From: Ignisphaera aggregans DSM 17230
GTDB lineage: Archaea; Thermoproteota; Thermoprotei_A; Sulfolobales; Ignisphaeraceae
Assembly (NCBI GenBank): GCA_000145985.1
Contig: CP002098.1
Coordinates: 682,001 to 746,000, forward strand
Direction of reading: 5' to 3'
Length of the DNA stretch: 64,000 nt
A model generated the notes under the pieces. The model made no database searches, was not told the DNA's origin, and worked only from the letters and a program-made list of their open reading frames with translations. The position numbers were made by a program, and so were the translations under genes. The number at the start of each line of letters is the position of its first letter. Position 1 is the first letter of the stretch. Below are positions 542 to 53,330 of this stretch, piece after piece.

Positions 542-3500
542 CTACTCCTCATATGGATAATATGTAATGCATTTACAGTTCTCAAGCTCCTTTATATCAG
601 CCTCACTAAACTCTGGAACAATCACATAGTCTCCTTTCCTTGGCTTCAATCTAACTCTATAGCTAATATGTTTTACGAAGAGACCACCATATCTTGTAAC
701 AATAGCTGAAAACATTGATTTAACATCATCGAGTGTAACATTGTTAAGTCTCAAAGCTATTTTTGATCTCCTATCCTGTATCTCGGCCTCTACCTCAAGA
801 ACAGCTTCCTCAACATCACACTCAGAACCAAGTCTAGTACTAAATATTCTTATAGGTCCAAGATTTGGCATTCCCATCTCGATCTCTAGCATAGAAATCT
901 TTGATCCTTTTGGTGGCACCCCCTGGATAGGTCTGATTCCCTTTGGCTTAACGATAATATTGATTTTAGCAGATCTAAGAGTCTCGCCAAGGCTATTGAG
1001 AACCTTTATATCATAGCTATACTCCCCAGGTTTATCTGGTGCTCTCAATCTCCATTCTACTATAGCTGACGGTCTATCATCACCAAGAACAATTTTATCA
1101 AGACTAAGACTACCATTTGATGCAACTAGAGTTACATCGCCTTTAAATGAGCCGATACGCTCAACAACAATATTTATAGAGAGATCCTCGCCGGGAGTAG
1201 CTATAGCTTCATATCTATCTAGCTTTATATCCACACCCTCCTGCAAAAACTCTACAACTCTAACAAGAGGACTCTCACGTAGAACACCTATATCAAATTT
1301 CTCTAGAGCTTCATCAACAGGTATCGGATTTCCACTGATATAGAATGCATACCATATCCTCCTAATACCACCAGAAACCTTCTCCTCCTTAACACCCTTC
1401 AAACCCTCGATCTGCTCCCTAAGAGCAGTTCTCCACGGCAAAACAACATCATTTAACCCTATATCACTTGGAACCTCTCCCTCTTCATATGAAGGCAATC
1501 TACATTCATATCTAGATTGACACTCATACACCTTTTTATAATATATCTTGCCCTCCTTCTTTATACCTATCTTAAGCTTCTTCACACCATCAATCAGAGC
1601 GTCTTTTACAGTTGTTTCTCTAACTATTGGTAGTCTTGGATTAGAATAGAAATAGTCTATAATATCAGAAACACTTCTCGACATATCACCTTCAGATATA
1701 TCGATACCCACCTGAGAAAGCAGATATTCAAGAGTCTCGAAATCGAGTTCTTCATAATATTTCTGTGGTTTAATGCTCTTTAGAGTTCTCGTAACATTCT
1801 CCACTATAGATTCAGCACCCGTAGAGGTTTCAGTGATTCTAAAGGTATTTCTATGGTTTTGCTCATCAAAACTAGGATAAGCAACAGTGTTGAGTCCCTG
1901 AAGAATTGATTGTGCAAGAAGACTTATAACACCTCCTTCACCTGTACAATAGCCTCGTAGCTTTTTCTCCATAACCTCACGTATATCCTCATCTCTATAT
2001 AGTGTACCAAGCTCTTCACTAACAATATCACAAGCTATCTTCCTCTTTGCATGACCAAGCATTACCGAGGTATAGTTGTTATCACTTGGATATATTAGAT
2101 ATACTGTATTGGCATATCTCCTATGTCCACCACTAGAAGTTTCATAGATCATCTTCTCTATATCGTTATCCCTAAGATGTGAGAGTATCGCTACCACAAC
2201 ATATCCCCTAGAGTCATAGTCTATAGATCTAGGTTCTGTTAACACCATACTAGATTCTACTTTAAATGGTGTCACAATCGGTGCGCCACGGCTATGTCTT
2301 CGAGAGCTAGATATTACTTCACTTATGGGTCTAGCCATAAGCTTCATTGCATAGTCCTTAACAACTTTCAAAGCTTCACCATCATCTATGGTTCTAGCGA
2401 CCATTTCTACTCTTCGTATAGGTGATGCTATTTGTGTAAACCAATAATGAATACCACTTGTATCCGTGAGTAGATAGGTGAGATTGTTTGATAGCCACTG
2501 TAATGCATCTATATAGTCTTTTGGCTGTATCGCTAATCTCCTTGCTGTCGATGGTTCATAAGACGATACTGCTATATCATATTTATCTGGATATATTTGG
2601 CGATACTCAAGCAGACCTGCATAGACAAATGATTTTACAAAGATTGTCTTTGCTATAATCTTAGCGAGAACAGGTTTTTCATACTCCTTGGTCTTCTCAA
2701 TTATATCCTCATTAACCACAGTATCGTATTGCCTATATAGCTCATGTGAGAGTAACATAGATCTTATTTCACGATCCTCAACATCTATATGGAAAGGCAT
2801 GATCAGCTCTACATCAGTATTTTCATTAGCGATTTTCCTTATGATTTTTCTAGTGAGTTTTATGAGATCTCTAGTTTTTTGTAATCCTTCATGCTTATCT
2901 ACGATGTTTATAAGTGTCTCTATATATGATGGGTGGAATGGATATGTTTTCTCGATTTGATATGCTTTTCTATCGGCACCCTGTCCAAAGATTTCTTTAT
3001 TTTCTTCAGCTCCATATATTTTTGTAAGTGTTGCTGCAATGCTTTTAGCTGGAACAGGGTCTATCTCCTCAAATATTCTTACCTTTAAAATACTTGGAAT
3101 ATCTGATGGTGCTACAGGTACTATTCTCTTGCCAGCAACCCTGGATATGGATCTATATAGGCTGAGTATTATGTCTTGAGAGGATTTATAGCGTTCCTCA
3201 ACTATAATTCCACTACCCGGCTTCTCCTCGATGGGTATGGATATCACTAGAATGCTGTATCTAGATAGTTCAATAGCCTTGGCTAGATATTCCATGAAAG
3301 CTACTACTTGATCACCATAGTTTTGAAGCCTAGGGTCTCCAGATCTCTTTAGCCTTGATATATAGTCAGCTATTTCATCTGCTAAGATAAGTGTTGGTTT
3401 ATCTCCAAGAAGCTTAACTATTATGTCTGGTGGAGGTGGTAATAGGGATTCATCATTTAGCTTAACTTCACCAAAACGACCTAGCTGATGTGCTAGAGAA

Positions 3501-35952: not shown

Positions 35953-36696
35953 GTGTTGAGGGATGTTGTGCTCTATCTTGTTTCGCTTTTTCCACGTGGG
36001 GCTGGGCGTACGAGGATTATGAAGCTGCTCTTCTTGGTTGATGCTGAGGCTAGGAAAAGGCTTGGTTATACTGTTACTGGTGTGAACTGGCGTCGCTGGT
36101 TCTATGGCCCCTTCTCTCGTGATGTTCTTGAGGTGCTTGATGAGCTTGTCTGGGAGGGGCGTCTAGCTGTGGATTCGGGTCCTGAGGTTAGGTATATAGC
36201 TCTAGACGAGCCACCCAAGCTTCCGCATGAAATAAAGGAGATTGTTGATGAGGTAGTGAATAACTATGGGTTTACACCTCTGAGAGAGCTACTTAAAAGG
36301 GTCTATGACGAGTACGGTGTAGAGAAAATTGGTCTGGGTGAGAAGATAGAGTTTGACTGGGACAAAGAGATTATTGAGCTTGTAGAGCTGGTCAATAGTG
36401 ATGAAGATGCAGTGGTGGAGCTCATAGGTAGGTTATATGATGAGTATAGAGATGCTCTCGAAGTACTTCCAAGGAATATACTAGCACTTTATTCAATAGC
36501 TGTATCCCATCTATCTTCCCACAATCCAGAGAAAGCCAAGGATCTGACACAGAGATTTGTAGAACTACTCAAAGAGCTGAGTAAGTATGTGAACAAGAAT
36601 ACCAAAGCAAGTTCAATACCACCAGTACTCAGACATAGGATGAAAGCAATATATGAGGAGCTTATCGATATTGCGGCTCGAGCAGTTGAGGGATAA
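35953..36696 (+). CDS. Panacea-domain antitoxin candidate
   Basis: A 247-residue protein. Residues 1-80 match the Panacea/DUF4065 type: LRDVVLYLVSLFPRGAGRTR, IMKLLFLVDAEARKRLGYTV, RRWFYGPFSRDVLEVLDELV. The W/F-YGPFS block is the most diagnostic. The rest is helical and Glu-rich. Family knowledge: Panacea domains neutralise very different toxins encoded next to them. The partner candidate is the next gene, 5 nt downstream. GTG start. Confidence 0.75.
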   Translation: MLRDVVLYLVSLFPRGAGRTRIMKLLFLVDAEARKRLGYTVTGVNWRRWFYGPFSRDVLEVLDELVWEGRLAVDSGPEVRYIALDEPPKLPHEIKEIVDEVVNNYGFTPLRELLKRVYDEYGVEKIGLGEKIEFDWDKEIIELVELVNSDEDAVVELIGRLYDEYRDALEVLPRNILALYSIAVSHLSSHNPEKAKDLTQRFVELLKELSKYVNKNTKASSIPPVLRHRMKAIYEELIDIAARAVEG

Positions 36697-36701
36697 TATG
36701 A

Positions 36702-37547
36702 TTGCAACTACTCTATCTCGACTCCTACTATTTTTACGCCCCTATTCCACGTGTTGTCAACCTCAGGCATAAGCTATCTCAATACGGTCTCCGGAACTAC
36801 AAGCTTTTATATGGAGGTTTTTCAGGACCTCGATACTTCGTACAACACTTTACACAGACCTTCTACGGCGAAACCATTACCAGCATAACGTCTCTCCATA
36901 CACAGCAGAGAGAGCTGAAGCCCGGTAAAGGCTTCCAAAAGCTTCTGAATACATTGAAGGGAGTGTTCAGTGGAAGAACCTCTAGGAAGTGTATAAGATT
37001 AGAAAAGCTAATAAAAATTGTTGGCGATGAAAGAGCAAATATAATTGACTTCACTGTGTTCATTCTTCGAAATGCTGATGCAGAGGATAAGATTAGCCAT
37101 GGATACTGTTATTCAGAGTTCATCGAGATAGATCGCAATACTGCAGAAGCACTATACAACCTAGTAAAAACCGAAGCCATCATCAAGTTCTTCAAGAGAC
37201 ATACCAATCTATATAAGCTCTATGAAGACTATATTCTATGTAGGACATGCCAAATCCTTGGCTTGAAGTATCCATACGATGTGATTCCAATAGAAGGGTT
37301 TGAGGAATACGCAACAGTCACTATCGAAGCTCTATGCAACGACTGTAGAAATCTGTGCATCGGACACCATGATGATATGAAGAGAGCCGAAGTATTACTA
37401 CTATATGCAGAGAGAAGCCCATCAGCTAATATATACATAGCTACTGTAGCCACAGTAACAAAGCCGGAGAAGTTTTATCAGGAGTGTTTTTCATGCTTAG
37501 CAAAATGCATAGAGAAGAAAGCAAACAATATAGTAGTTCTATACTAA
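36702..37547 (+). CDS. Cys-rich partner of a Panacea protein, toxin candidate
   Basis: A 281-residue protein with a TTG start 5 nt after the Panacea stop. It begins QLLYLDSYYFYAPIPRVVNL. Three metal-site-like clusters lie in the C-terminal half: CRTC, CNDCRNLCIGHHDD, and CFSCLAKC. The N-terminal half has basic, aromatic-rich segments. No known toxin fold is recognised. The zinc-like clusters and tight coupling make it a good candidate for a new toxin family. An alternative ATG frame at 36699 stops early and is rejected. Confidence 0.65.
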   Translation: MQLLYLDSYYFYAPIPRVVNLRHKLSQYGLRNYKLLYGGFSGPRYFVQHFTQTFYGETITSITSLHTQQRELKPGKGFQKLLNTLKGVFSGRTSRKCIRLEKLIKIVGDERANIIDFTVFILRNADAEDKISHGYCYSEFIEIDRNTAEALYNLVKTEAIIKFFKRHTNLYKLYEDYILCRTCQILGLKYPYDVIPIEGFEEYATVTIEALCNDCRNLCIGHHDDMKRAEVLLLYAERSPSANIYIATVATVTKPEKFYQECFSCLAKCIEKKANNIVVLY

Positions 37548-40386: not shown

Positions 40387-40959
40387 ATGGAGAGACTGGG
40401 TCTATTACGCTACCTGATTACAAGGCACTACGAGCTTTATGGAAAGCTCTATGGGAGGAAGAAGCTTCAGAAGCTCCTCTTCCTAGTCGAACACCTAGAT
40501 TTGTCAAGCCGTAGAGTAGTGAAGTCAACGGGTTTAACCGGGTATAAGTTCTATATCTGGCTCTACGGTCCATTCTCCGAGGAGGTCTACAAAGATTTGG
40601 AGACTCTAGTCAATAGGGAGGACATCATTGAGGAGGTTATTGGTGCAGATACACGTATAAGGGTTGACGAGGCTGGGGTAGTACTACCACTCTACGACGA
40701 CGATGAGGCTCCTAAAGTCATCTACATATACCAGCCGAGGACAAGCATTCTACAGAGGTTCCTCGGTGGCAGAGATAAGGTGGAGATTAATGAAAGAGTT
40801 AAGGAGAAGATTGAGTGGGTGCTCAAAGAGTTTGGGAAGCTTAGACCCTCCGAGCTCGAGGATATTACAATGAGGCTCCTCGGTCTTACACAGGACAAGA
40901 AGCTTAAGTATCTCGGTGTGAGTGTGGATGAATACCTTGAGAAGGAGAACTTAGTGTGA
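40387..40959 (+). CDS. Panacea-domain antitoxin candidate
   Basis: A 190-residue protein. It shows the Panacea pattern: RYLITRHYELYGKLYGRKKL, QKLLFLVEHLDLSSRR, then YKFYIWLYGPFSEEVYKDLE. The C-terminal half (about 115-190) is a separate helical domain that likely contacts the toxin. ATG start with GGTG upstream. The next gene, a nuclease-like protein, begins 7 nt later, so the two form a toxin-antitoxin-like pair. Confidence 0.75.
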   Translation: MERLGLLRYLITRHYELYGKLYGRKKLQKLLFLVEHLDLSSRRVVKSTGLTGYKFYIWLYGPFSEEVYKDLETLVNREDIIEEVIGADTRIRVDEAGVVLPLYDDDEAPKVIYIYQPRTSILQRFLGGRDKVEINERVKEKIEWVLKEFGKLRPSELEDITMRLLGLTQDKKLKYLGVSVDEYLEKENLV

Positions 40960-40966
40960 GTAGTGC

Positions 40967-41659
40967 TTGAATATCTACTGGGACATAGTAGAACTGCCAG
41001 GGGTTAAGGTAATACCAAGTAAAAGGTTTAGAAAAATCGTTGAAAAACTGCTGAAAGCTCTTGATGATGGGTTAATAGATTTTGTTGACCTTGTGAAGGT
41101 GTCTCAATACGATCTCAGTAGCACGAAGAAGTCTAGAGGTGATGTATCTTCATCAATCAATAGAATCTCTAGAGCCACCAAAGCCGACCGTAGGGATATA
41201 CTGAAGGAGACATCATCCTCATACATGTTTGTTACAGCAGTGTTCTATGCTATCAAAGACCTTGACAGAGAAAGCAAGTTACAATTCCTTATTGAGCCAA
41301 GATTAGAACCTGGCTCATATACTTATGACTACGCGATATATGACCCAGTAGAAGGGAGACTGAAAGTTGTTGCCGAAGTTAAGAGACTGAGAAGCCTAGC
41401 CAACATAGGAGAATACCTAGAAACATTCATGAATAAAACTGAAAAGTGTCTTGCTACAGAGTCTATTCATCGGATAGCGCTTCACATCCACTTGACGCCA
41501 GAGATTCTTGAGAAATATCAAGGAGTTGAGGAACTTCTACTAGGCTTAGGCAAAGACATTCAGCTCTCTAAATGCAAACTAACACTAATTACAAGTAGTG
41601 GTGACACGCTGGATGAATTCATGCGGATACTTGGAAACCAAATACAGCATCTTATCTGA
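40967..41659 (+). CDS. PD-(D/E)XK nuclease-like partner of Panacea protein
   Basis: A 230-residue protein, TTG start. The second half carries a nuclease core: YTYDYAIYDPVEGRLKVVAE then VKR, with D121 or D126, E137 and K139 fitting PD-(D/E)XK, followed by a helix and LTLITSSGDTLDEF. The first half is helical and basic (SQYDLSSTKKSRGDVSSS) and could bind nucleic acid. Its partner is the Panacea gene 7 nt upstream. DNA or RNA cleavage leading to growth arrest is inferred. Confidence 0.7.
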   Translation: MNIYWDIVELPGVKVIPSKRFRKIVEKLLKALDDGLIDFVDLVKVSQYDLSSTKKSRGDVSSSINRISRATKADRRDILKETSSSYMFVTAVFYAIKDLDRESKLQFLIEPRLEPGSYTYDYAIYDPVEGRLKVVAEVKRLRSLANIGEYLETFMNKTEKCLATESIHRIALHIHLTPEILEKYQGVEELLLGLGKDIQLSKCKLTLITSSGDTLDEFMRILGNQIQHLI

Positions 41660-42588: not shown

Positions 42589-42966
42589 TCATTGACATTT
42601 AAGTCCTCTTCTCATTAGAAGTGTATTGAGATCTATATCCTCGTTACACCTAAGTACCTCAACATTGGGTCTTGATGCGAGTTTCTTAAGCGTCCAATGT
42701 ACACCACCTCTATGGTGTAGCAAAAGCATTTTTATGGCTTTAGTACTTTGGAAGAACTCTTCCTCTACGAGTTTGTTGTAAGATGCTTCAAGTTTCTGGA
42801 TATCTTTCGGCTCTGGTACACCTGTATCTTCGATAACTATGTTGATTACATATTTGTTACATTTGATGACTAATGCTATATCGCTTCTCTTCAAAGGTTG
42901 AGCCAGAGCCTCATCTAGATCTCCCCATTTTAGCAGTTCAGCATTAGGTGGAAGAATTATCTTCAC
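42589..42966 (-). CDS. Small partner of the OLD-like ATPase
   Basis: A 125-residue protein. The frame is open to 43005, but the GTG at 42966 has GTGAGGATC upstream and overlaps the ATPase end by 23 nt. It reads KIILPPNAELLKWGDLDEAL, SDIALVIKCNKYVINIVIED, then AIKMLLLHHRGGVHWTLKKL. The strand order DIALVIK, YVINIVIED resembles a shrunken nuclease core but lacks the Lys of ExK. Encoded with an ATPase as a two-gene module. Effector or regulator role inferred. Confidence 0.6.
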   Translation of the reverse strand: MKIILPPNAELLKWGDLDEALAQPLKRSDIALVIKCNKYVINIVIEDTGVPEPKDIQKLEASYNKLVEEEFFQSTKAIKMLLLHHRGGVHWTLKKLASRPNVEVLRCNEDIDLNTLLMRRGLKCQ

Positions 42967-44551
42967 ATTTTTGATCCTCACTATCTTTGCCTCCAAGTGC
43001 CTCACCCTCAGCTTTAATCATCTGGATTCTGTAGTAGAGGTTCATGTGCTCCTCATAGAGCTCTTCAACTATCTTCCTAAAAACATCATCTGGAATACCC
43101 ATTTCGCTCACCTTCACTTCTTCTATAATTGAAAAGCCTTCACCTCTACTAAAGCTATAGACCTTCACATCCTCAGGCTTTAACACTACTCTAAATCCTG
43201 ATGCATCTGTATATCCAGCCATAACCAAATTGCTAAGCTTAGTAAGAATCACATCACTATGCGTCGTAATTATGACCTTTACACCAAGCCTCTTAGCTAG
43301 AAGCGCCAAGACTTCAACTAGCCTAGCCTGTTTATCTGGATGTAGATGTGCCTCAGGCTCCTCAATAATCAAAATATCATTCTTCCTAATCAAACCATAC
43401 TTAAGATATAAATCGAGAGGACTAAGCTCAGCAATCATTGAAGATACATTTGGAAGCGAGAACTCAAACTCTTTAGATCTATACACAGGTTCGGGAAGAG
43501 ATATATCACCCCTTCTAACAAGTTCTATGCTTCCCTCCAACACCTCTTCCAATAGCCCACTAACCTCCTTCAGCTCATCACCTGCACCAGTCCTTGGTTC
43601 CAACGATATAAGTTCTGCTAGAAAATCCGCTAAAATACCAGGAACCCTAGGAATTTCAGCACCACGAATAGGCATCTCAGGTACAGACTTTATCAATGCA
43701 TGTGCTACAGTTCTATAGCTATGCAAAATCCCTGCTCGAGAAGCTGGAAAATACCTAATATCAAAATCAATAAAATCTTTTTCTAAAGCTTCATACAAAA
43801 GTGCATAAATTTCATAAATAATATCAAATAAGAATCGAAGTATCGGTTCCTTTGCACTTCTCCTCAAATAGAAATAGATGTATCTATAAAAACGACTACT
43901 TCTTATCACAATATCTTTTTCAAGGTTCTTCAATATGATACCCGTCTTTGGAGTAAGCGTAATATTGAGATCTACATAGGCATCCTGTTCTACTCCAGGT
44001 TTCGGTATCGATACCTTCAAGTCGTAGCTTAGCTTGAAGAACTCGCCTTCAAGTTCGAGCTCTGCATTCATCTCGTTTGATTCTCGCCTCACAAGATCTG
44101 TGAGTCTAGATGAGAACACCCTCTCGGTCTCGGTTATCACAAGCTCCTTATAGTTTTTAGAATTCAATTCCTTATTTAACTCGATTCTATAAAGCTCAAT
44201 GCTTCTTTCCGTAAATTCCTTTAGAGTTTTATTCAATTCTTCAATTTTTTGACGATTTTTAGACTTATTAATTGAGTTCTGATATATTTTCCGGAGCTTT
44301 TCTAGGTACTCATACACAAAACTTCCCAACGATGATTTCTCCAAATCCTTCACTAACACAGATCCGATCAGTGGAAATTTCACTGTTTTGATGATCCTCT
44401 GAGAACTTTTTATCAATGCATATAGGAGCATGGCTGTATAGGACTTACCAGTGTTGTTGGGCCCTATGAGAACTGTAATCGGTGCTAGCTCTATCTTTCC
44501 CTCACCAACATATCCAAAGTTCTTGACTTTAAGCCTAGCAGATTTTATCAT
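42944..44551 (-). CDS. OLD-like AAA ATPase
   Basis: A 535-residue ABC-type ATPase of the AAA_15/AAA_21 (OLD, RecF-like) class. The ATG at 44551 has GGTGAG upstream; the frame extends to 44563. Seen: SARLKVKNFGYVGEGKIELA, Walker A VLIGPNNTGKSYT, a long helical insert, signature-like LSPLDLYLKYG, Walker B ILIIEEPEAHLHPDKQARLV and KVIITTHSDVILTKLSNLV. No Toprim domain is fused. Such ATPases sense DNA ends or phage proteins and activate a partner in several defence systems (OLD, PARIS, retron-type). The partner here is the small overlapping gene. Confidence 0.8.
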   Translation of the reverse strand: MIKSARLKVKNFGYVGEGKIELAPITVLIGPNNTGKSYTAMLLYALIKSSQRIIKTVKFPLIGSVLVKDLEKSSLGSFVYEYLEKLRKIYQNSINKSKNRQKIEELNKTLKEFTERSIELYRIELNKELNSKNYKELVITETERVFSSRLTDLVRRESNEMNAELELEGEFFKLSYDLKVSIPKPGVEQDAYVDLNITLTPKTGIILKNLEKDIVIRSSRFYRYIYFYLRRSAKEPILRFLFDIIYEIYALLYEALEKDFIDFDIRYFPASRAGILHSYRTVAHALIKSVPEMPIRGAEIPRVPGILADFLAELISLEPRTGAGDELKEVSGLLEEVLEGSIELVRRGDISLPEPVYRSKEFEFSLPNVSSMIAELSPLDLYLKYGLIRKNDILIIEEPEAHLHPDKQARLVEVLALLAKRLGVKVIITTHSDVILTKLSNLVMAGYTDASGFRVVLKPEDVKVYSFSRGEGFSIIEEVKVSEMGIPDDVFRKIVEELYEEHMNLYYRIQMIKAEGEALGGKDSEDQKCEDNSST

Positions 44552-44804
44552 TATGCTCACCAATCATATCTTTAGAGCTTCCTCTCAAAAGAAATTTCCT
44601 CATATAGTTAATAAATGTGCATGGCTATTCCTCTAATAACAACCATTATATTTACTGCCATGATCAATGCTGGGTTTCCACAAAATCTAAAAGAGAAGGG
44701 TTCATCAACTGATAGATAGGGAGCTATTTGTTTTAGTCAGCAGGAATAGACGGAAAGTTGATGTTCATCTATTTTGGTGTGATAAAATTGATAAGTGTTT
44801 TTAG

Positions 44805-44835: not shown

Positions 44836-45675
44836 ATGGGTTGTGTGAAGTTTGTTTATAGAAATCTTGTTTTGGAGCGTTTAGTGGAACTCTTTAGAGG
44901 TCTTAGCTATGTTGAGGTGGCAATACTTTTTGGTTCGTTTGCTAGAGGTGAGCCTTTTGCTCATGATATTGATATAGCGGTGAAGTTTTCTGGTGGGGGT
45001 GGTTTGTTTGATCTGGGTCTTCTTGTTTCTAGGATTGCTGAGGTTCTTGGTGTTGGAGAGGAGTGTGTTGATGTTGTAGATCTTGACTCGGCTAATCCTA
45101 TCCTTCTCTTTAGAATTCTTAGTGAGGGAATTCTTCTTAAGGGTGGAGAAGAAGCTTTGAGGATACTGGCTGAGAGAGCTTCTCTATATCCAGACATATT
45201 GATGGAGATAAAGATGTGGAGCAATCTCGACCCGGATCCAAAACCTGATGTTGTTATCATATCTTCTAGAGTTGAAGAGATTCGAAGGAATGTAAATTTT
45301 ATTAGGAGTAGAATTCTTAGTCGAAAGCCAGAGGAGCTAGACTATGGAGATATTCTAGCCTTTGAAAGAGCTCTACATAGAACAATTGAAGCAATGCTAG
45401 ATATATGTAGACATCTTGTCTCTGTCTACTCCCTCGGACTTGTAGAAAGCTATGGTGAATACCCCCGCAAACTAGCTCAGGCAGGGATTATGCCTAGAGA
45501 ACTAGCTGAGGAAATCGTAATGCTTACCGGGCTCAGAAATATACTTGTACATCGCTACCTAGAGATAGATATTGGAAAACTCTATACTGTTGCAAAACAG
45601 ATTGTGGAGAGAATTGCTATAGAATTCATCGACTGGATTAGAGCCATTGTTAAAGCAGATCAAGAAGTAAGATGA
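44836..45675 (+). CDS. Single-chain MNT nucleotidyltransferase-HEPN fusion
   Basis: A 279-residue protein joining two domains. Residues 10-110: minimal nucleotidyltransferase, ILFGSFARGEPFAHDIDIAV with G33-S34 and D44/D46, and CVDVVDLDSANPILLFRILS. Residues 145-270: HepT-type HEPN domain with LRNILVHRYLEID, i.e. R234-x4-H239-x-Y241. In known HepT/MntA pairs the MNT enzyme adds AMP to the Tyr of R-x4-H-x-Y to silence the HEPN RNase; the two are separate genes. Here one chain contains both, with all motifs intact, so modification in cis is possible. ATG start. Next gene is an ATPase_2 protein 79 nt downstream. Confidence 0.8.
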   Translation: MGCVKFVYRNLVLERLVELFRGLSYVEVAILFGSFARGEPFAHDIDIAVKFSGGGGLFDLGLLVSRIAEVLGVGEECVDVVDLDSANPILLFRILSEGILLKGGEEALRILAERASLYPDILMEIKMWSNLDPDPKPDVVIISSRVEEIRRNVNFIRSRILSRKPEELDYGDILAFERALHRTIEAMLDICRHLVSVYSLGLVESYGEYPRKLAQAGIMPRELAEEIVMLTGLRNILVHRYLEIDIGKLYTVAKQIVERIAIEFIDWIRAIVKADQEVR

Positions 45676-45754: not shown

Positions 45755-46774
45755 GTGAAGAGAGTTAGACTCTCATTTGCTGATATAAACATTGAATTTG
45801 TTGATAGGGAGATAGCCCTTAGACAGATTATGGAGTTAGCTGAGAGAGGTACATATCCTGTATACATTGTCTATGGCCCTGAGGGCTGTGGTAAGACAGC
45901 ATTTTTCAAACAGGCTAAAACAATTCTTGAGGAGGAGTTTGGTTACAATATAGTATATGTTAATCCTCTTGCCAGAAGACTCGAGGAGGTTATCGGCTAT
46001 AGCTCTAGTCTAAAGGATATCGTTGTAGAGATCCTCAAGGTTTTTTCAGAGCCCTACTCAAAAATTGTTGATGTGGCTATAGGTATTGTTGGTGAAGTGC
46101 TTAGGAGGCTTAAAAGGACTAGGCTGGCAATCCTCATGGACGATATATTTCAGGCTGTGGGTCTGGATAAAGCTGAGGTATATACAAAGATGTTGCTAAA
46201 TCTAATCGAGTATCCTCCTGGGGAGTATGAGAGAATAGTTGTACTGGTTTCATCTAGTGAAGGTATCACAAGAGAGAGGATTGGGAGACATAGATGGGCA
46301 ACATTTAGAATTATGTGGAATATGTCTAGAGAAGGATTCAAACAGCTCTATGAACAGATACCCGGGGAGAAACCCCAATTCGAAGAGATCTGGAGAATAA
46401 CAGGTGGAAATCCAGCAGCTTTAGAACAGCTATATAGATATAGCTGGAGATTTGATAGAACTATAGACGATATAGCGATGAGAAAGAACCTCAGAATATT
46501 TATATCTTCGCTTAGCTCTACAGAGCTAGAGATTCTGAAAGATATTCTTAGAGAGCCAGACGTAATTATTGAAAGGTTGAGGGAGTCTGAGACCCAGAAA
46601 CTGAGGATGAAGCTGATAGAGTTAAATCTCATTGTTGAGCTATGGGATAGAGATCCATGGCTCTGGATAGATGTTCCACCACCTGAGAAAGACAGTGAGC
46701 TCGGTATAGGAAAACATTTTGCGTGGCAGACACCACTACATAGAGAAGCTGTTAGAAGAGCTCTAGAAAGATAG
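45755..46774 (+). CDS. ATPase_2 family archaeal P-loop ATPase, copy 1
   Basis: A 339-residue STAND-related archaeal ATPase (ATPase_2). Walker A GPEGCGKT at residues 41-48, Walker B LAILMDDIFQAVGLDKAE, sensor-like IVVLVSSSEGITRERIGRHR, then FKQLYEQIPG and a GGNPAALEQLYRYSW block typical of the family. The C-terminus is a winged-helix-like region ending ELGIGKHFAWQTPLHREAVR. Two close paralogues lie at 50496 and 52305. GTG start, with GGGGTG 10 nt upstream, as in both paralogues. Role unknown; such ATPases occur in variable islands. Confidence 0.85.
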   Translation: MKRVRLSFADINIEFVDREIALRQIMELAERGTYPVYIVYGPEGCGKTAFFKQAKTILEEEFGYNIVYVNPLARRLEEVIGYSSSLKDIVVEILKVFSEPYSKIVDVAIGIVGEVLRRLKRTRLAILMDDIFQAVGLDKAEVYTKMLLNLIEYPPGEYERIVVLVSSSEGITRERIGRHRWATFRIMWNMSREGFKQLYEQIPGEKPQFEEIWRITGGNPAALEQLYRYSWRFDRTIDDIAMRKNLRIFISSLSSTELEILKDILREPDVIIERLRESETQKLRMKLIELNLIVELWDRDPWLWIDVPPPEKDSELGIGKHFAWQTPLHREAVRRALER

Positions 46775-50480: not shown

Positions 50481-50495
50481 TTGGGTGTGTTTATA

Positions 50496-51506
50496 GTGAG
50501 GAGAATAAAGCTGAGATTTGCTGATAGAGAGATAGAATTTGCTGATAGAGAAGTTGCATTGAAGCAGGTAGAAGAGTTTGCTGAGAGGGGTACTAGATTT
50601 CCAGTTGTTGTCTATGGTCCTGAGGGCTGTGGTAAGACAGCATTTTTCAAACAGGCTAAGGTTGTTCTTGAGGAATATGATTATAGTGTTGTATATACAA
50701 ATCCTTTGGCTCATGAAGAAAGAGAAATTCTATTGTATACACCATCTATACGTGATATCGTTGAGGAGGTTTTCAAATCTTTTCCAGATCCATATTCAAG
50801 AATTGTTGATATAGCTATAAGAATTGCTAGTAGGGTTATGAGGAAGCTTAGAAAGCCTAGGATAGCTATCTTAATGGACGATATATTCCAGGCTATTGGG
50901 TTGGATAAGGCAGAGATATACACAAAGATATTATTGAATCTAATAGAGTATCCATCTGGAGACTATGAAAAGATAGTTGTCTTGGTTTCTAGTAGCGAAG
51001 GTGTTACAAGGACAAGGATTGGGAGACACCTATGGTCTGTTATGTATCTTATGTGGAATATGTCTAGAGAAGGCCTTAAACTATTGTATGATGTTGTACC
51101 GGATCCTAAACCTCTATTTGAAGATGTATGGAGGTTTACAGGAGGAAACCCGAGGATCTTCGAAATGTTACATAGCTTTAGTTGGAATATAGATATGGTG
51201 ATTAGTATGTTTATCAAGGAACGCGATATTAGGGGTGTCATGGCTTCGCTTAGTAGTGAAGAGATAGAGATTCTGAGAAAGGCTTTGGAGGATCCAGATA
51301 CGATATTCAGATCCCTTAGAAATCCAGCTACACAGAAGCTTGAGAAGCTTTTAATTGAGCTAAATCTAATTATTGATGTGTGGGAGAGGGATAAGTTCTG
51401 GATAGATACTCCACCACCCGAAAAGGATTTAGAGCTTGGTATAGGTGAATACTATGCATGGCAGACACCTCTGCATAGAGAAGCTGTTAAAAGGGTTTTG
51501 GTATAG
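50496..51506 (+). CDS. ATPase_2 family archaeal P-loop ATPase, copy 2
   Basis: A paralogue of the genes at 45755 and 52305. The GTG at 50496 matches the start of the other copies and has GGGTG at the same distance. Walker A GPEGCGKT, Walker B IAILMDDIFQAIGLDKAE, VVLVSSSEGVTRTRIGRHLW and an end ELGIGEYYAWQTPLHREAVK are all kept. Relative to copy 1 the middle region and helical C-domain have diverged (FTGGNPRIFEMLHSFSW). The 38 bases around the P-loop are identical in all three copies. Confidence 0.85.
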   Translation: MRRIKLRFADREIEFADREVALKQVEEFAERGTRFPVVVYGPEGCGKTAFFKQAKVVLEEYDYSVVYTNPLAHEEREILLYTPSIRDIVEEVFKSFPDPYSRIVDIAIRIASRVMRKLRKPRIAILMDDIFQAIGLDKAEIYTKILLNLIEYPSGDYEKIVVLVSSSEGVTRTRIGRHLWSVMYLMWNMSREGLKLLYDVVPDPKPLFEDVWRFTGGNPRIFEMLHSFSWNIDMVISMFIKERDIRGVMASLSSEEIEILRKALEDPDTIFRSLRNPATQKLEKLLIELNLIIDVWERDKFWIDTPPPEKDLELGIGEYYAWQTPLHREAVKRVLV

Positions 51507-52190: not shown

Positions 52191-52304
52191 ATATAGATAT
52201 AGAGGAAGACCAAAGCAATTCTCTAACCTATCGCTACAGTTATAAGTTTTGTAATGCTATAGACAGGTTGGGTTTTGGTGTAAATCTTTTGGGTGGTTGT
52301 AATA

Positions 52305-53330
52305 GTGTGGAGAAGGGCTAAGCTCAGGTTTATGGATAGAGAGATTATATTTGTTGATAGGGAGAGGGCTTTGAAGCAGCTGGAGGAGATAGCTGAGAGA
52401 GGTACCTATCCTGTCTATGTAGTTTATGGTCCTGAGGGCTGTGGTAAGACAGCATTTTTCAAACAGGCGTTTGAGATTCTAGAGAGTTTTGGTTACTATG
52501 TAGTGTACTCTAGCCCTCTATCTAAGGAGGTTGAAGAGCTTCTCCGCTATTCATCGAGTCTTGGTGAGATTGTTAGAGAGGTGTTGAAGCTTTTTCCAGA
52601 GCCATACTCAAGAATTGCAGATGTTGTTATAAATATTGCTGGAAGGGCTATGAAGAGATTTAGCAAACCTAGAATTGCTATACTTCTCGATGATCTTTTC
52701 CAAGCTGTTGGAATAGACAAGGCTGAGATATATACCAAGGCTTTGCTAAACCTTATCGAATATCCTTCGGGAGACTACGAGAAGATTGTCGTCTTAGTTT
52801 CATCAAGTGAGGGTATTACAAGAGAAAGGGTTGGTAGACATAGATGGGTAGACATATATCTAATGTGGAATATGTCTAGAAAAGGTTTTGAAGAACTCTA
52901 CAACATGCTCCCAGACCCCAAACCATCACTAGATATATTATGGGCATGGGCTGGTGGAAATCCCTGGGTTCTACAAGAGCTCTATAGAAATAGATGGCAA
53001 ATTGATTTAGTTATTGAGAGATTTGCAAAGGAGCGCAAACTTAGAACTCTTCTCACCTCTCTAGATAGAGAGGAGATAGAAGTTTTAAAGACATCTCTAG
53101 AAAACCCCGATATAATTTTCAAATCTCTTAGAAATCCAGTTATACAAAAACTTGAAAAGCTTTTGATAGAGATGAACCTATTGATAGAGATCTGGGATAG
53201 AGATGAAAGACTCTGGATAGATGTTCCACCACCAGAGAAAGACACTGAGCTCGGTATTGGCGAATACTATGCCTGGCAAACACCTCTACATAAAGAGGCG
53301 GTTAAAAGAATATTAATGCAAATTCTATAG
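52305..53330 (+). CDS. ATPase_2 family archaeal P-loop ATPase, copy 3
   Basis: Third paralogue. GTG at 52305, aligned with the other copies, with GGGTGG upstream. Walker A GPEGCGKT; Walker B IAILLDDLFQAVGIDKAE; VVLVSSSEGITRERVGRHRW; AGGNPWVLQELYRNRW; end ELGIGEYYAWQTPLHKEAVK. Intact. Closest to copy 2 in the C-terminal region (SLRNPVIQKLEKLLIEMNLL). Copies 2 and 3 are separated only by the dead ATPase at 51.6-52.2 kb. Confidence 0.85.
   Translation: MWRRAKLRFMDREIIFVDRERALKQLEEIAERGTYPVYVVYGPEGCGKTAFFKQAFEILESFGYYVVYSSPLSKEVEELLRYSSSLGEIVREVLKLFPEPYSRIADVVINIAGRAMKRFSKPRIAILLDDLFQAVGIDKAEIYTKALLNLIEYPSGDYEKIVVLVSSSEGITRERVGRHRWVDIYLMWNMSRKGFEELYNMLPDPKPSLDILWAWAGGNPWVLQELYRNRWQIDLVIERFAKERKLRTLLTSLDREEIEVLKTSLENPDIIFKSLRNPVIQKLEKLLIEMNLLIEIWDRDERLWIDVPPPEKDTELGIGEYYAWQTPLHKEAVKRILMQIL

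What the first reader, a model, noticed from the sequence alone, without database searches (positions are those of the whole stretch)
44836..45675. MntA and HepT in one polypeptide with all motifs intact
The nucleotidyltransferase (GSF...DID) and HEPN (R-x4-H-x-Y) halves of the HepT/MntA toxin-antitoxin system are normally separate. In this 279-residue fusion the enzyme could AMPylate its own HEPN Tyr241, giving a self-silenced RNase that might be activated when the modification is removed or blocked.
Basis: partly seen in the sequence, partly recalled or inferred. Interest (0 to 1): 0.65.

Follow-up and report, generated by a model that had tools for sequence, protein, structure and literature searches.

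The report
Fused MntA-HepT self-silencing RNase candidate
A heat-loving archaeon carries an RNA-cutting toxin and the enzyme that normally switches it off as one protein with all active-site residues intact, and this fused form turns out to be an old, conserved archaeal family, sometimes with an ATPase gene beside it.

Summary
Window 44836-45675 is one uninterrupted 279-aa ORF in a 1,875,953-bp genome whose size matches Ignisphaera aggregans. It has an N-terminal MntA-like nucleotidyltransferase (GSFARGEPFAHDID) and a C-terminal HepT-like HEPN RNase (RNILVHRY, Tyr241). It is not a one-off. I collected 32 window-type MNT-HEPN fusions, which form a single clade once one interrupted copy is set aside. 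At about 32% median identity they keep Tyr241 in 32/32, Arg234 in 32/32, His239 in 31/32 and GS...DxD in 30/32. The opposite order (HEPN-MNT) is also common, including a second copy in this genome. Anantharaman et al. 2013 recorded HEPN-M as 'occasionally fused to MNT' but called fused HEPNs typically inactive; here most are intact. Best explanation: a tethered type VII toxin-antitoxin protein that AMPylates HEPN Tyr241 (own or sister chain) to hold an RNase silent. AMPylation, RNase activity and cis versus trans are inferred, not shown. New here: 8 of 32 window-type fusions, including this one, have a co-directional ATPase_2 gene within 500 bp, against 2 of 48 split pairs; the ATPase is a candidate regulator. 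Verdict: a new variant of a known kind.

The parts
44836..45675 (+). MNT-HEPN fusion gene, 279 aa
   Evidence: single ORF; Pfam and NCBIfam domains; 32-member family
44875..45141 (+). MntA-like nucleotidyltransferase domain (residues 14-102)
   Evidence: PF18765 E=1.3e-12; the model matches MntA of Shewanella, 7bxo_E, E=1.2e-6, TM by target 0.74
44932..44973 (+). GSX9DXD active-site motif, G33-S34, D44, D46
   Evidence: GS...DxD intact in 30/32 family members
45340..45615 (+). HepT-like HEPN domain (residues 169-260)
   Evidence: PF01934 E=6.7e-20; the model matches HepT 5yep_B, TM by target 0.87
45535..45558 (+). RX4HXY motif RNILVHRY: R234, H239, Y241 (predicted AMP acceptor)
   Evidence: R 32/32, H 31/32, Y 32/32; aligned with S. 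oneidensis HepT RX4HXY
45755..46774 (+). ATPase_2 (archaeal STAND-like ATPase) gene, 339 aa, next gene on the same strand; candidate partner
   Evidence: PF01637 E=2e-63; co-directional neighbour within 500 bp in 8/32 window-type fusions

Best explanation
The gene encodes a tethered version of the type VII HepT/MntA toxin-antitoxin pair. The C-terminal HEPN domain is a (probably dimeric) RNase using Arg234 and His239. The N-terminal MNT domain uses ATP and Mg through G33-S34/D44/D46 to add AMP to Tyr241 next to the RNase site, on its own chain or on the sister chain of the oligomer, so the RNase is made together with its silencer in a fixed 1:1 ratio. Activation would come when modification fails or is reversed (low ATP, a phosphodiesterase, or action of a partner such as the neighbouring ATPase_2), and would shut down translation. 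Shown here: domains, motifs, their conservation, clade and neighbourhood. Inferred from studied homologues: AMPylation, RNase activity, dimerisation. Speculative: the trigger and the ATPase's role.
For: Both halves match HepT and MntA by profile and by predicted fold. Active residues of both halves are kept across 32 window-type fusions at median 32% identity. Purifying pattern in the MNT, linker and HEPN segments alike against the 66-68% identical relative: differences by codon position 0.30/0.17/0.65, 0.22/0.18/0.60 and 0.22/0.11/0.66; dN 0.25, dS saturated. One clade keeps the fusion. The mechanism is established for separate proteins in Shewanella and in the archaeon Thermococcus cleftensis (PMC7641770) and in Legionella (PMC11586414).
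Against: No expression, activity or modification data. The MntA half is below NCBIfam's equivalog cut-off and its motif spacing is X9. Some fused relatives are damaged: L069 has H239Q and GS changed to RS; L060 has lost the catalytic part of MNT but keeps RHALVHRY, which is hard to square with a strongly toxic RNase that needs its MNT. Among fusions of the class the catalytic His is lost in 5 of 34, and in 0 of 48 split pairs (p=0.010). The interdomain geometry is not resolved (pTM 0.60).
Confidence: 0.65

Rival explanations
1. Domesticated modifying enzyme: HEPN has become the substrate-binding half of a nucleotidyltransferase that modifies some other protein, RNA or small molecule, as in aminoglycoside adenylyltransferases.
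For: Anantharaman et al. 2013 state that HEPN domains fused to MNT typically lack RNase residues and became substrate-binding or regulatory domains (PMC3710099). Full-length but loose fold matches to AadA/ANT enzymes (TM about 0.33). His lost in a minority of fusions.
Against: R234 and H239, which substrate binding alone would not need, are kept in 32/32 and 31/32. The best structural and sequence matches are HepT and MntA, not drug-modifying enzymes.
Confidence: 0.15
2. Self-silenced RNase whose switch is the neighbouring ATPase_2: the ATPase senses infection or stress and lifts (or imposes) the block, making a fusion-plus-ATPase defence module. (An extension of the best explanation rather than an exclusive alternative.)
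For: Same-strand ATPase_2 within 500 bp in 8/32 window-type fusions against 2/48 split pairs (p=0.012), in both gene orders, once with overlapping reading frames (L060: fusion stop over ATPase start). In genome G369 all three ATPase_2 genes found lie within about 5 kb beside a fusion and a split pair. Both fusions in this genome have ATPase_2 neighbours. Defence-type genes nearby.
Against: 24 of 32 fusions have no such neighbour within 500 bp (some contigs are short). This genome has 13 close paralogues and most are not beside HEPN/MNT genes. The association could be co-location in defence islands.
Confidence: 0.2
3. The MNT half works in trans, silencing other HepT proteins of the same cell (two split HepT/MntA pairs and a HEPN-MNT fusion are present) rather than its own HEPN.
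For: Other HEPN-M proteins with the same motif are encoded in the genome.
Against: Each of those has its own MNT; Tyr241 is invariant in the fused HEPN itself.
Confidence: 0.08
4. Artefact or decaying relic: a chance read-through of two genes.
For: A few relatives are broken (L060, L066, L151).
Against: Finished genome, intact ORF, one clade of fusions, purifying pattern.
Confidence: 0.02

Closest known systems
HepT/MntA (HEPN-MNT) type VII toxin-antitoxin, Shewanella oneidensis SO_3166/SO_3165 and T. cleftensis CL1_0071/CL1_0070 (PMC7641770)
   Same: Both domains, RX4HXY with acceptor Tyr, GS...DxD, ATP-dependent AMPylation expected
   Different: There two proteins from two genes; here one chain with a linker, GSX9DXD, and no separate partner gene adjacent
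'HEPN-M occasionally fused to MNT' (Anantharaman et al. 2013, PMC3710099, Table 1)
   Same: Same domain families fused; this is the general record of the architecture
   Different: They state that fused HEPNs typically lack RNase residues; in the window-type clade these are almost always intact; no clade, domain orders or ATPase partner described in the passages read
DPANN MNT-HEPN fusion cls.004259 / NEQ050 (PMC6393860)
   Same: MNT fused to HEPN in archaea
   Different: Widely conserved in DPANN and typically in a house-keeping context; not compared by sequence here
HEPN-MNT reverse-order fusions of Thermoproteia (e.g. this genome at C1:1577 kb, L055)
   Same: Same two domains in one chain, mostly with intact motifs
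   Different: Opposite domain order, separate places in the tree
Aminoglycoside nucleotidyltransferases AadA/ANT
   Same: Nucleotidyltransferase plus helical-bundle two-domain layout
   Different: Loose structural match only; not a HepT-type HEPN with RX4HXY (from knowledge of the families, PMC3710099 Table 1)
Cmr1-MntA (PDB 9z7q)
   Same: MntA domain tethered in one polypeptide to another protein
   Different: By its name fused to a type III-B CRISPR subunit, not to HepT; the paper was not available

Membership tests
HepT (type VII toxin, PF01934) | HEPN-M fold and family profile | tested here: met
   PF01934 E=6.7e-20; NCBIfam equivalog over cut-off; fold match TM by target 0.87
HepT (type VII toxin, PF01934) | RX4HXY motif | tested here: met
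   RNILVHRY; R 32/32, H 31/32, Y 32/32 in the family
HepT (type VII toxin, PF01934) | RNase activity and toxicity | not testable with these tools
   needs bench assay
MntA (type VII antitoxin) | MNT/Pol-beta profile | tested here: met
   PF18765 and PF01909 over cut-off
MntA (type VII antitoxin) | NCBIfam MntA equivalog cut-off (60 bits) | tested here: not met
   49.4 bits
MntA (type VII antitoxin) | GSX10DXD motif | tested here: inconclusive
   functional residues present, spacing X9; spacings X8 to X10 also occur in archaeal split pairs
MntA (type VII antitoxin) | AMPylates the HepT tyrosine | not testable with these tools
   needs mass spectrometry
Type VII toxin-antitoxin operon | Toxin and antitoxin as two separate genes | tested here: not met
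   one ORF, one chain; so it is filed as a fused variant that works like the pair, not as a classical pair
Nucleotidyltransferase with inactive HEPN substrate domain (AadA/ANT-like) | Loss of HEPN RNase residues | tested here: not met
   R, H and Y conserved

The most novel reading that the evidence does not exclude
A fused MNT-HEPN protein plus an adjacent ATPase_2 gene is an undescribed archaeal defence or stress module: a cis-AMPylated, pre-silenced RNase whose release is controlled by a STAND-like ATPase that senses the trigger.
Probability: 0.18. Interest if true: 0.75.

Novelty: new variant of a known kind. Interest (0 to 1): 0.5.

Why it matters
If the fused protein AMPylates itself, toxin and antitoxin cannot be separated by differential degradation or dilution, so the usual addiction logic fails and activation must work by de-AMPylation, lack of ATP or a partner. 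That makes the open question of how type VII systems are switched on directly testable in one thermostable protein. The recurrent ATPase_2 neighbour offers a concrete candidate for the switch, and the conserved RNase residues are an exception to the view that HEPN domains fused to MNT are generally dead.

Tried and rejected
Frameshift or artefact fusion: rejected (finished genome, 32-member clade). Mobile or viral origin: no relative in viral contigs with the family profile, none in phage records, no convincing viral fold match; plasmid hits are halophile and Cytobacillus loci, most annotated as two adjacent genes. Internal start giving a separate HepT: in-frame ATG codons at residues 123 and 127, without an evident Shine-Dalgarno-like stretch in the 20 bases before them; not excluded. 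A first protein-based scan of genome contigs found nothing; the alignment-based scan found 23 loci. The AU test rejected the 31 window-type rows as one clade when the interrupted gene L066 was in the set, because L066 is itself a member; without it they form one group. L057 looks like a young independent fusion, or a one-base indel in a draft genome, and was kept apart. A search for the paper behind PDB Cmr1-MntA found nothing.

Full report
What is there. The finding's coordinates hold: 44836-45675 (+) is a single 279-codon ORF with an ATG start. Residues 14-102 match Pfam Polbeta/NTP_transf_2 and residues 169-260 match HepT-like PF01934. NCBIfam's HepT model is passed (81.4 against 60 bits), its MntA model is not (49.4 against 60). 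Solved relatives are the known HEPN toxin and MNT antitoxin chains, those of Shewanella oneidensis first. The genome (G000) is one contig of 1,875,953 bp, the size published for Ignisphaera aggregans AQ1.S1 (PMC3035270).

Motifs. The nucleotidyltransferase motif reads GSFARGEPFAHDID (G33, S34, D44, D46), with nine residues between GS and DxD rather than the published ten. The RNase motif reads RNILVHRY (R234, H239, Y241). In Shewanella the Tyr of RX4HXY receives three AMPs from MntA through GSX10DXD, and an archaeal pair from Thermococcus cleftensis behaves alike (PMC7641770). Legionella HEPN-MNT does too, and HEPN there is a dimer/tetramer (PMC11586414).

How common are fusions? HepT-like PF01934 occurs in 79 of 229 genomes of the class. 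In the loci fetched I classified 6 MNT-HEPN fusions, 29 HEPN-MNT fusions, 24 MNT-first split pairs, 24 HEPN-first split pairs and 3 solos. The loci were chosen by hit score and by open-frame length, so these are not frequencies. Some fused ORFs are damaged or lie on contig ends. The same genome holds a reverse-order HEPN-MNT fusion at C1:1577 kb and two split pairs.

The window-type family. Alignment-based searches of the phylum and of named genomes brought further MNT-HEPN fusions from Thermoprotei, Bathyarchaeota, Geocrenenecus, Terraquivivens, Hecatellales, Baldrarchaeum and Methanophagales. Among 32 sequences (median identity 0.32) the counts are: G33 30, S34 31, D44 31, D46 31, R234 32, H239 31, Y241 32; D79, at the presumed third carboxylate, 27. 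H193 (32/32), E185 and D189 are also conserved. In a combined MNT+HEPN tree the window-type fusions form one group with SH-aLRT 95 once L066, an interrupted copy from Zestosphaera tikiterensis, is left out. HEPN-MNT fusions lie elsewhere, in more than one place, and L057 is a separate, young MNT-HEPN fusion inside the split pairs. So fusion happened several times, and the window's lineage is old and has stayed fused.

Selection. Against the closest relative (L006, 66-68% identical) differences fall mainly on third codon positions in the MNT, linker and HEPN segments alike, with dN 0.25 and dS saturated. The linker is thus constrained too, as expected of one working chain.

Structure. AlphaFold2 with 19 sequences gave mean pLDDT 88 but pTM 0.60, with a dip at about residues 121-130. 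Each domain is well modelled and matches HepT (5yep_B, TM by target 0.87) and MntA (7bxo, 0.74). Their mutual placement is not fixed, so whether D44/D46 can reach Tyr241 of the same chain cannot be told from this model. According to the Legionella paper, the C-terminal helix of other MNTs docks on HEPN helices alpha1 and alpha6; a link from that helix into HEPN alpha1 is therefore sterically plausible (inference).

Signs of other fates. The catalytic His is lost in 5 of 34 fused HEPNs of the class (Q, Y, R, Y, Y) and in none of 48 split-pair HEPNs (p=0.010), while Tyr remains. L060 has lost the catalytic part of MNT but keeps the RNase motif. So some fusions have lost one activity, in line with the domestication noted by Anantharaman et al. 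2013 (PMC3710099), but the window protein and most of its clade have not.

The neighbour. An ATPase_2 gene (PF01637, E=2e-63) starts 79 bp after the fusion's stop on the same strand. Same-strand ATPase_2 genes lie within 500 bp of 8 of 32 window-type fusions and 2 of 48 split pairs (p=0.012). Gaps run from an overlap of about 13 bp to 426 bp, and the ATPase may come before or after. In G369 the only three ATPase_2 genes detected at E<=1e-25 lie within about 5 kb, beside a fusion and a split pair. By my hand count, 20 of 58 such ATPase genes in 15 genomes with window-type fusions lie within a few kilobases of a HEPN/MNT locus; against an assumed 3% background this is far beyond chance, though the 3% is an estimate and tandem copies are not independent. 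The family is large (13 close paralogues here) and most copies in this genome lie elsewhere, so it is a partial association. I found no mention of it in the library.

Setting. Near the gene lie two SocA/Panacea-domain genes, an OLD/AAA_15-like ATPase gene matching PADLOC defence models and two more ATPase_2 genes, which suggests a defence or mobile island. The fusion itself has only weak PADLOC matches.

Conclusion. The new elements are the clade with intact motifs, the two domain orders with repeated origins, and the ATPase link. Function remains inferred from homologues.

Noticed in passing
G000:C1:1577069-1577854 (L055:4970-5755): Second fusion in the same genome in reverse order (HEPN-MNT, RNILVHEY, GGRSKRYLMKGDYD), flanked on both sides by ATPase_2 genes.
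   Followed up: partly
window 50481-51506 and 52293-53330: Two further ATPase_2 paralogues a few kb downstream; 13 close copies in the genome.
   Followed up: partly
window 42589-44563 (-): OLD/AAA_15-like ATPase gene (PADLOC PD-T4-4_A, AriA-like) overlapping a 138-aa downstream ORF without Pfam match: possible two-gene defence system.
   Followed up: no
window 35953-37547 and 40387-41659: Two gene pairs, each a SocA/Panacea-domain protein followed by a protein without clear family: possible toxin-antitoxin pairs.
   Followed up: no
L173:3911-5159 (= L066): Zestosphaera tikiterensis window-type fusion interrupted in the MNT half by a stretch of roughly 200-350 bp, with the HEPN half intact.
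   Followed up: partly
L060:3169-3918 and 2169-3182: Fusion lacking the catalytic part of MNT but with intact RHALVHRY; its stop codon overlaps the start of an ATPase_2 gene.
   Followed up: partly
PDB 9z7q: Solved Cmr1-MntA fusion: an MntA domain tethered to a type III-B CRISPR subunit (by its name), matched by the family profile (E=6.5e-7).
   Followed up: no
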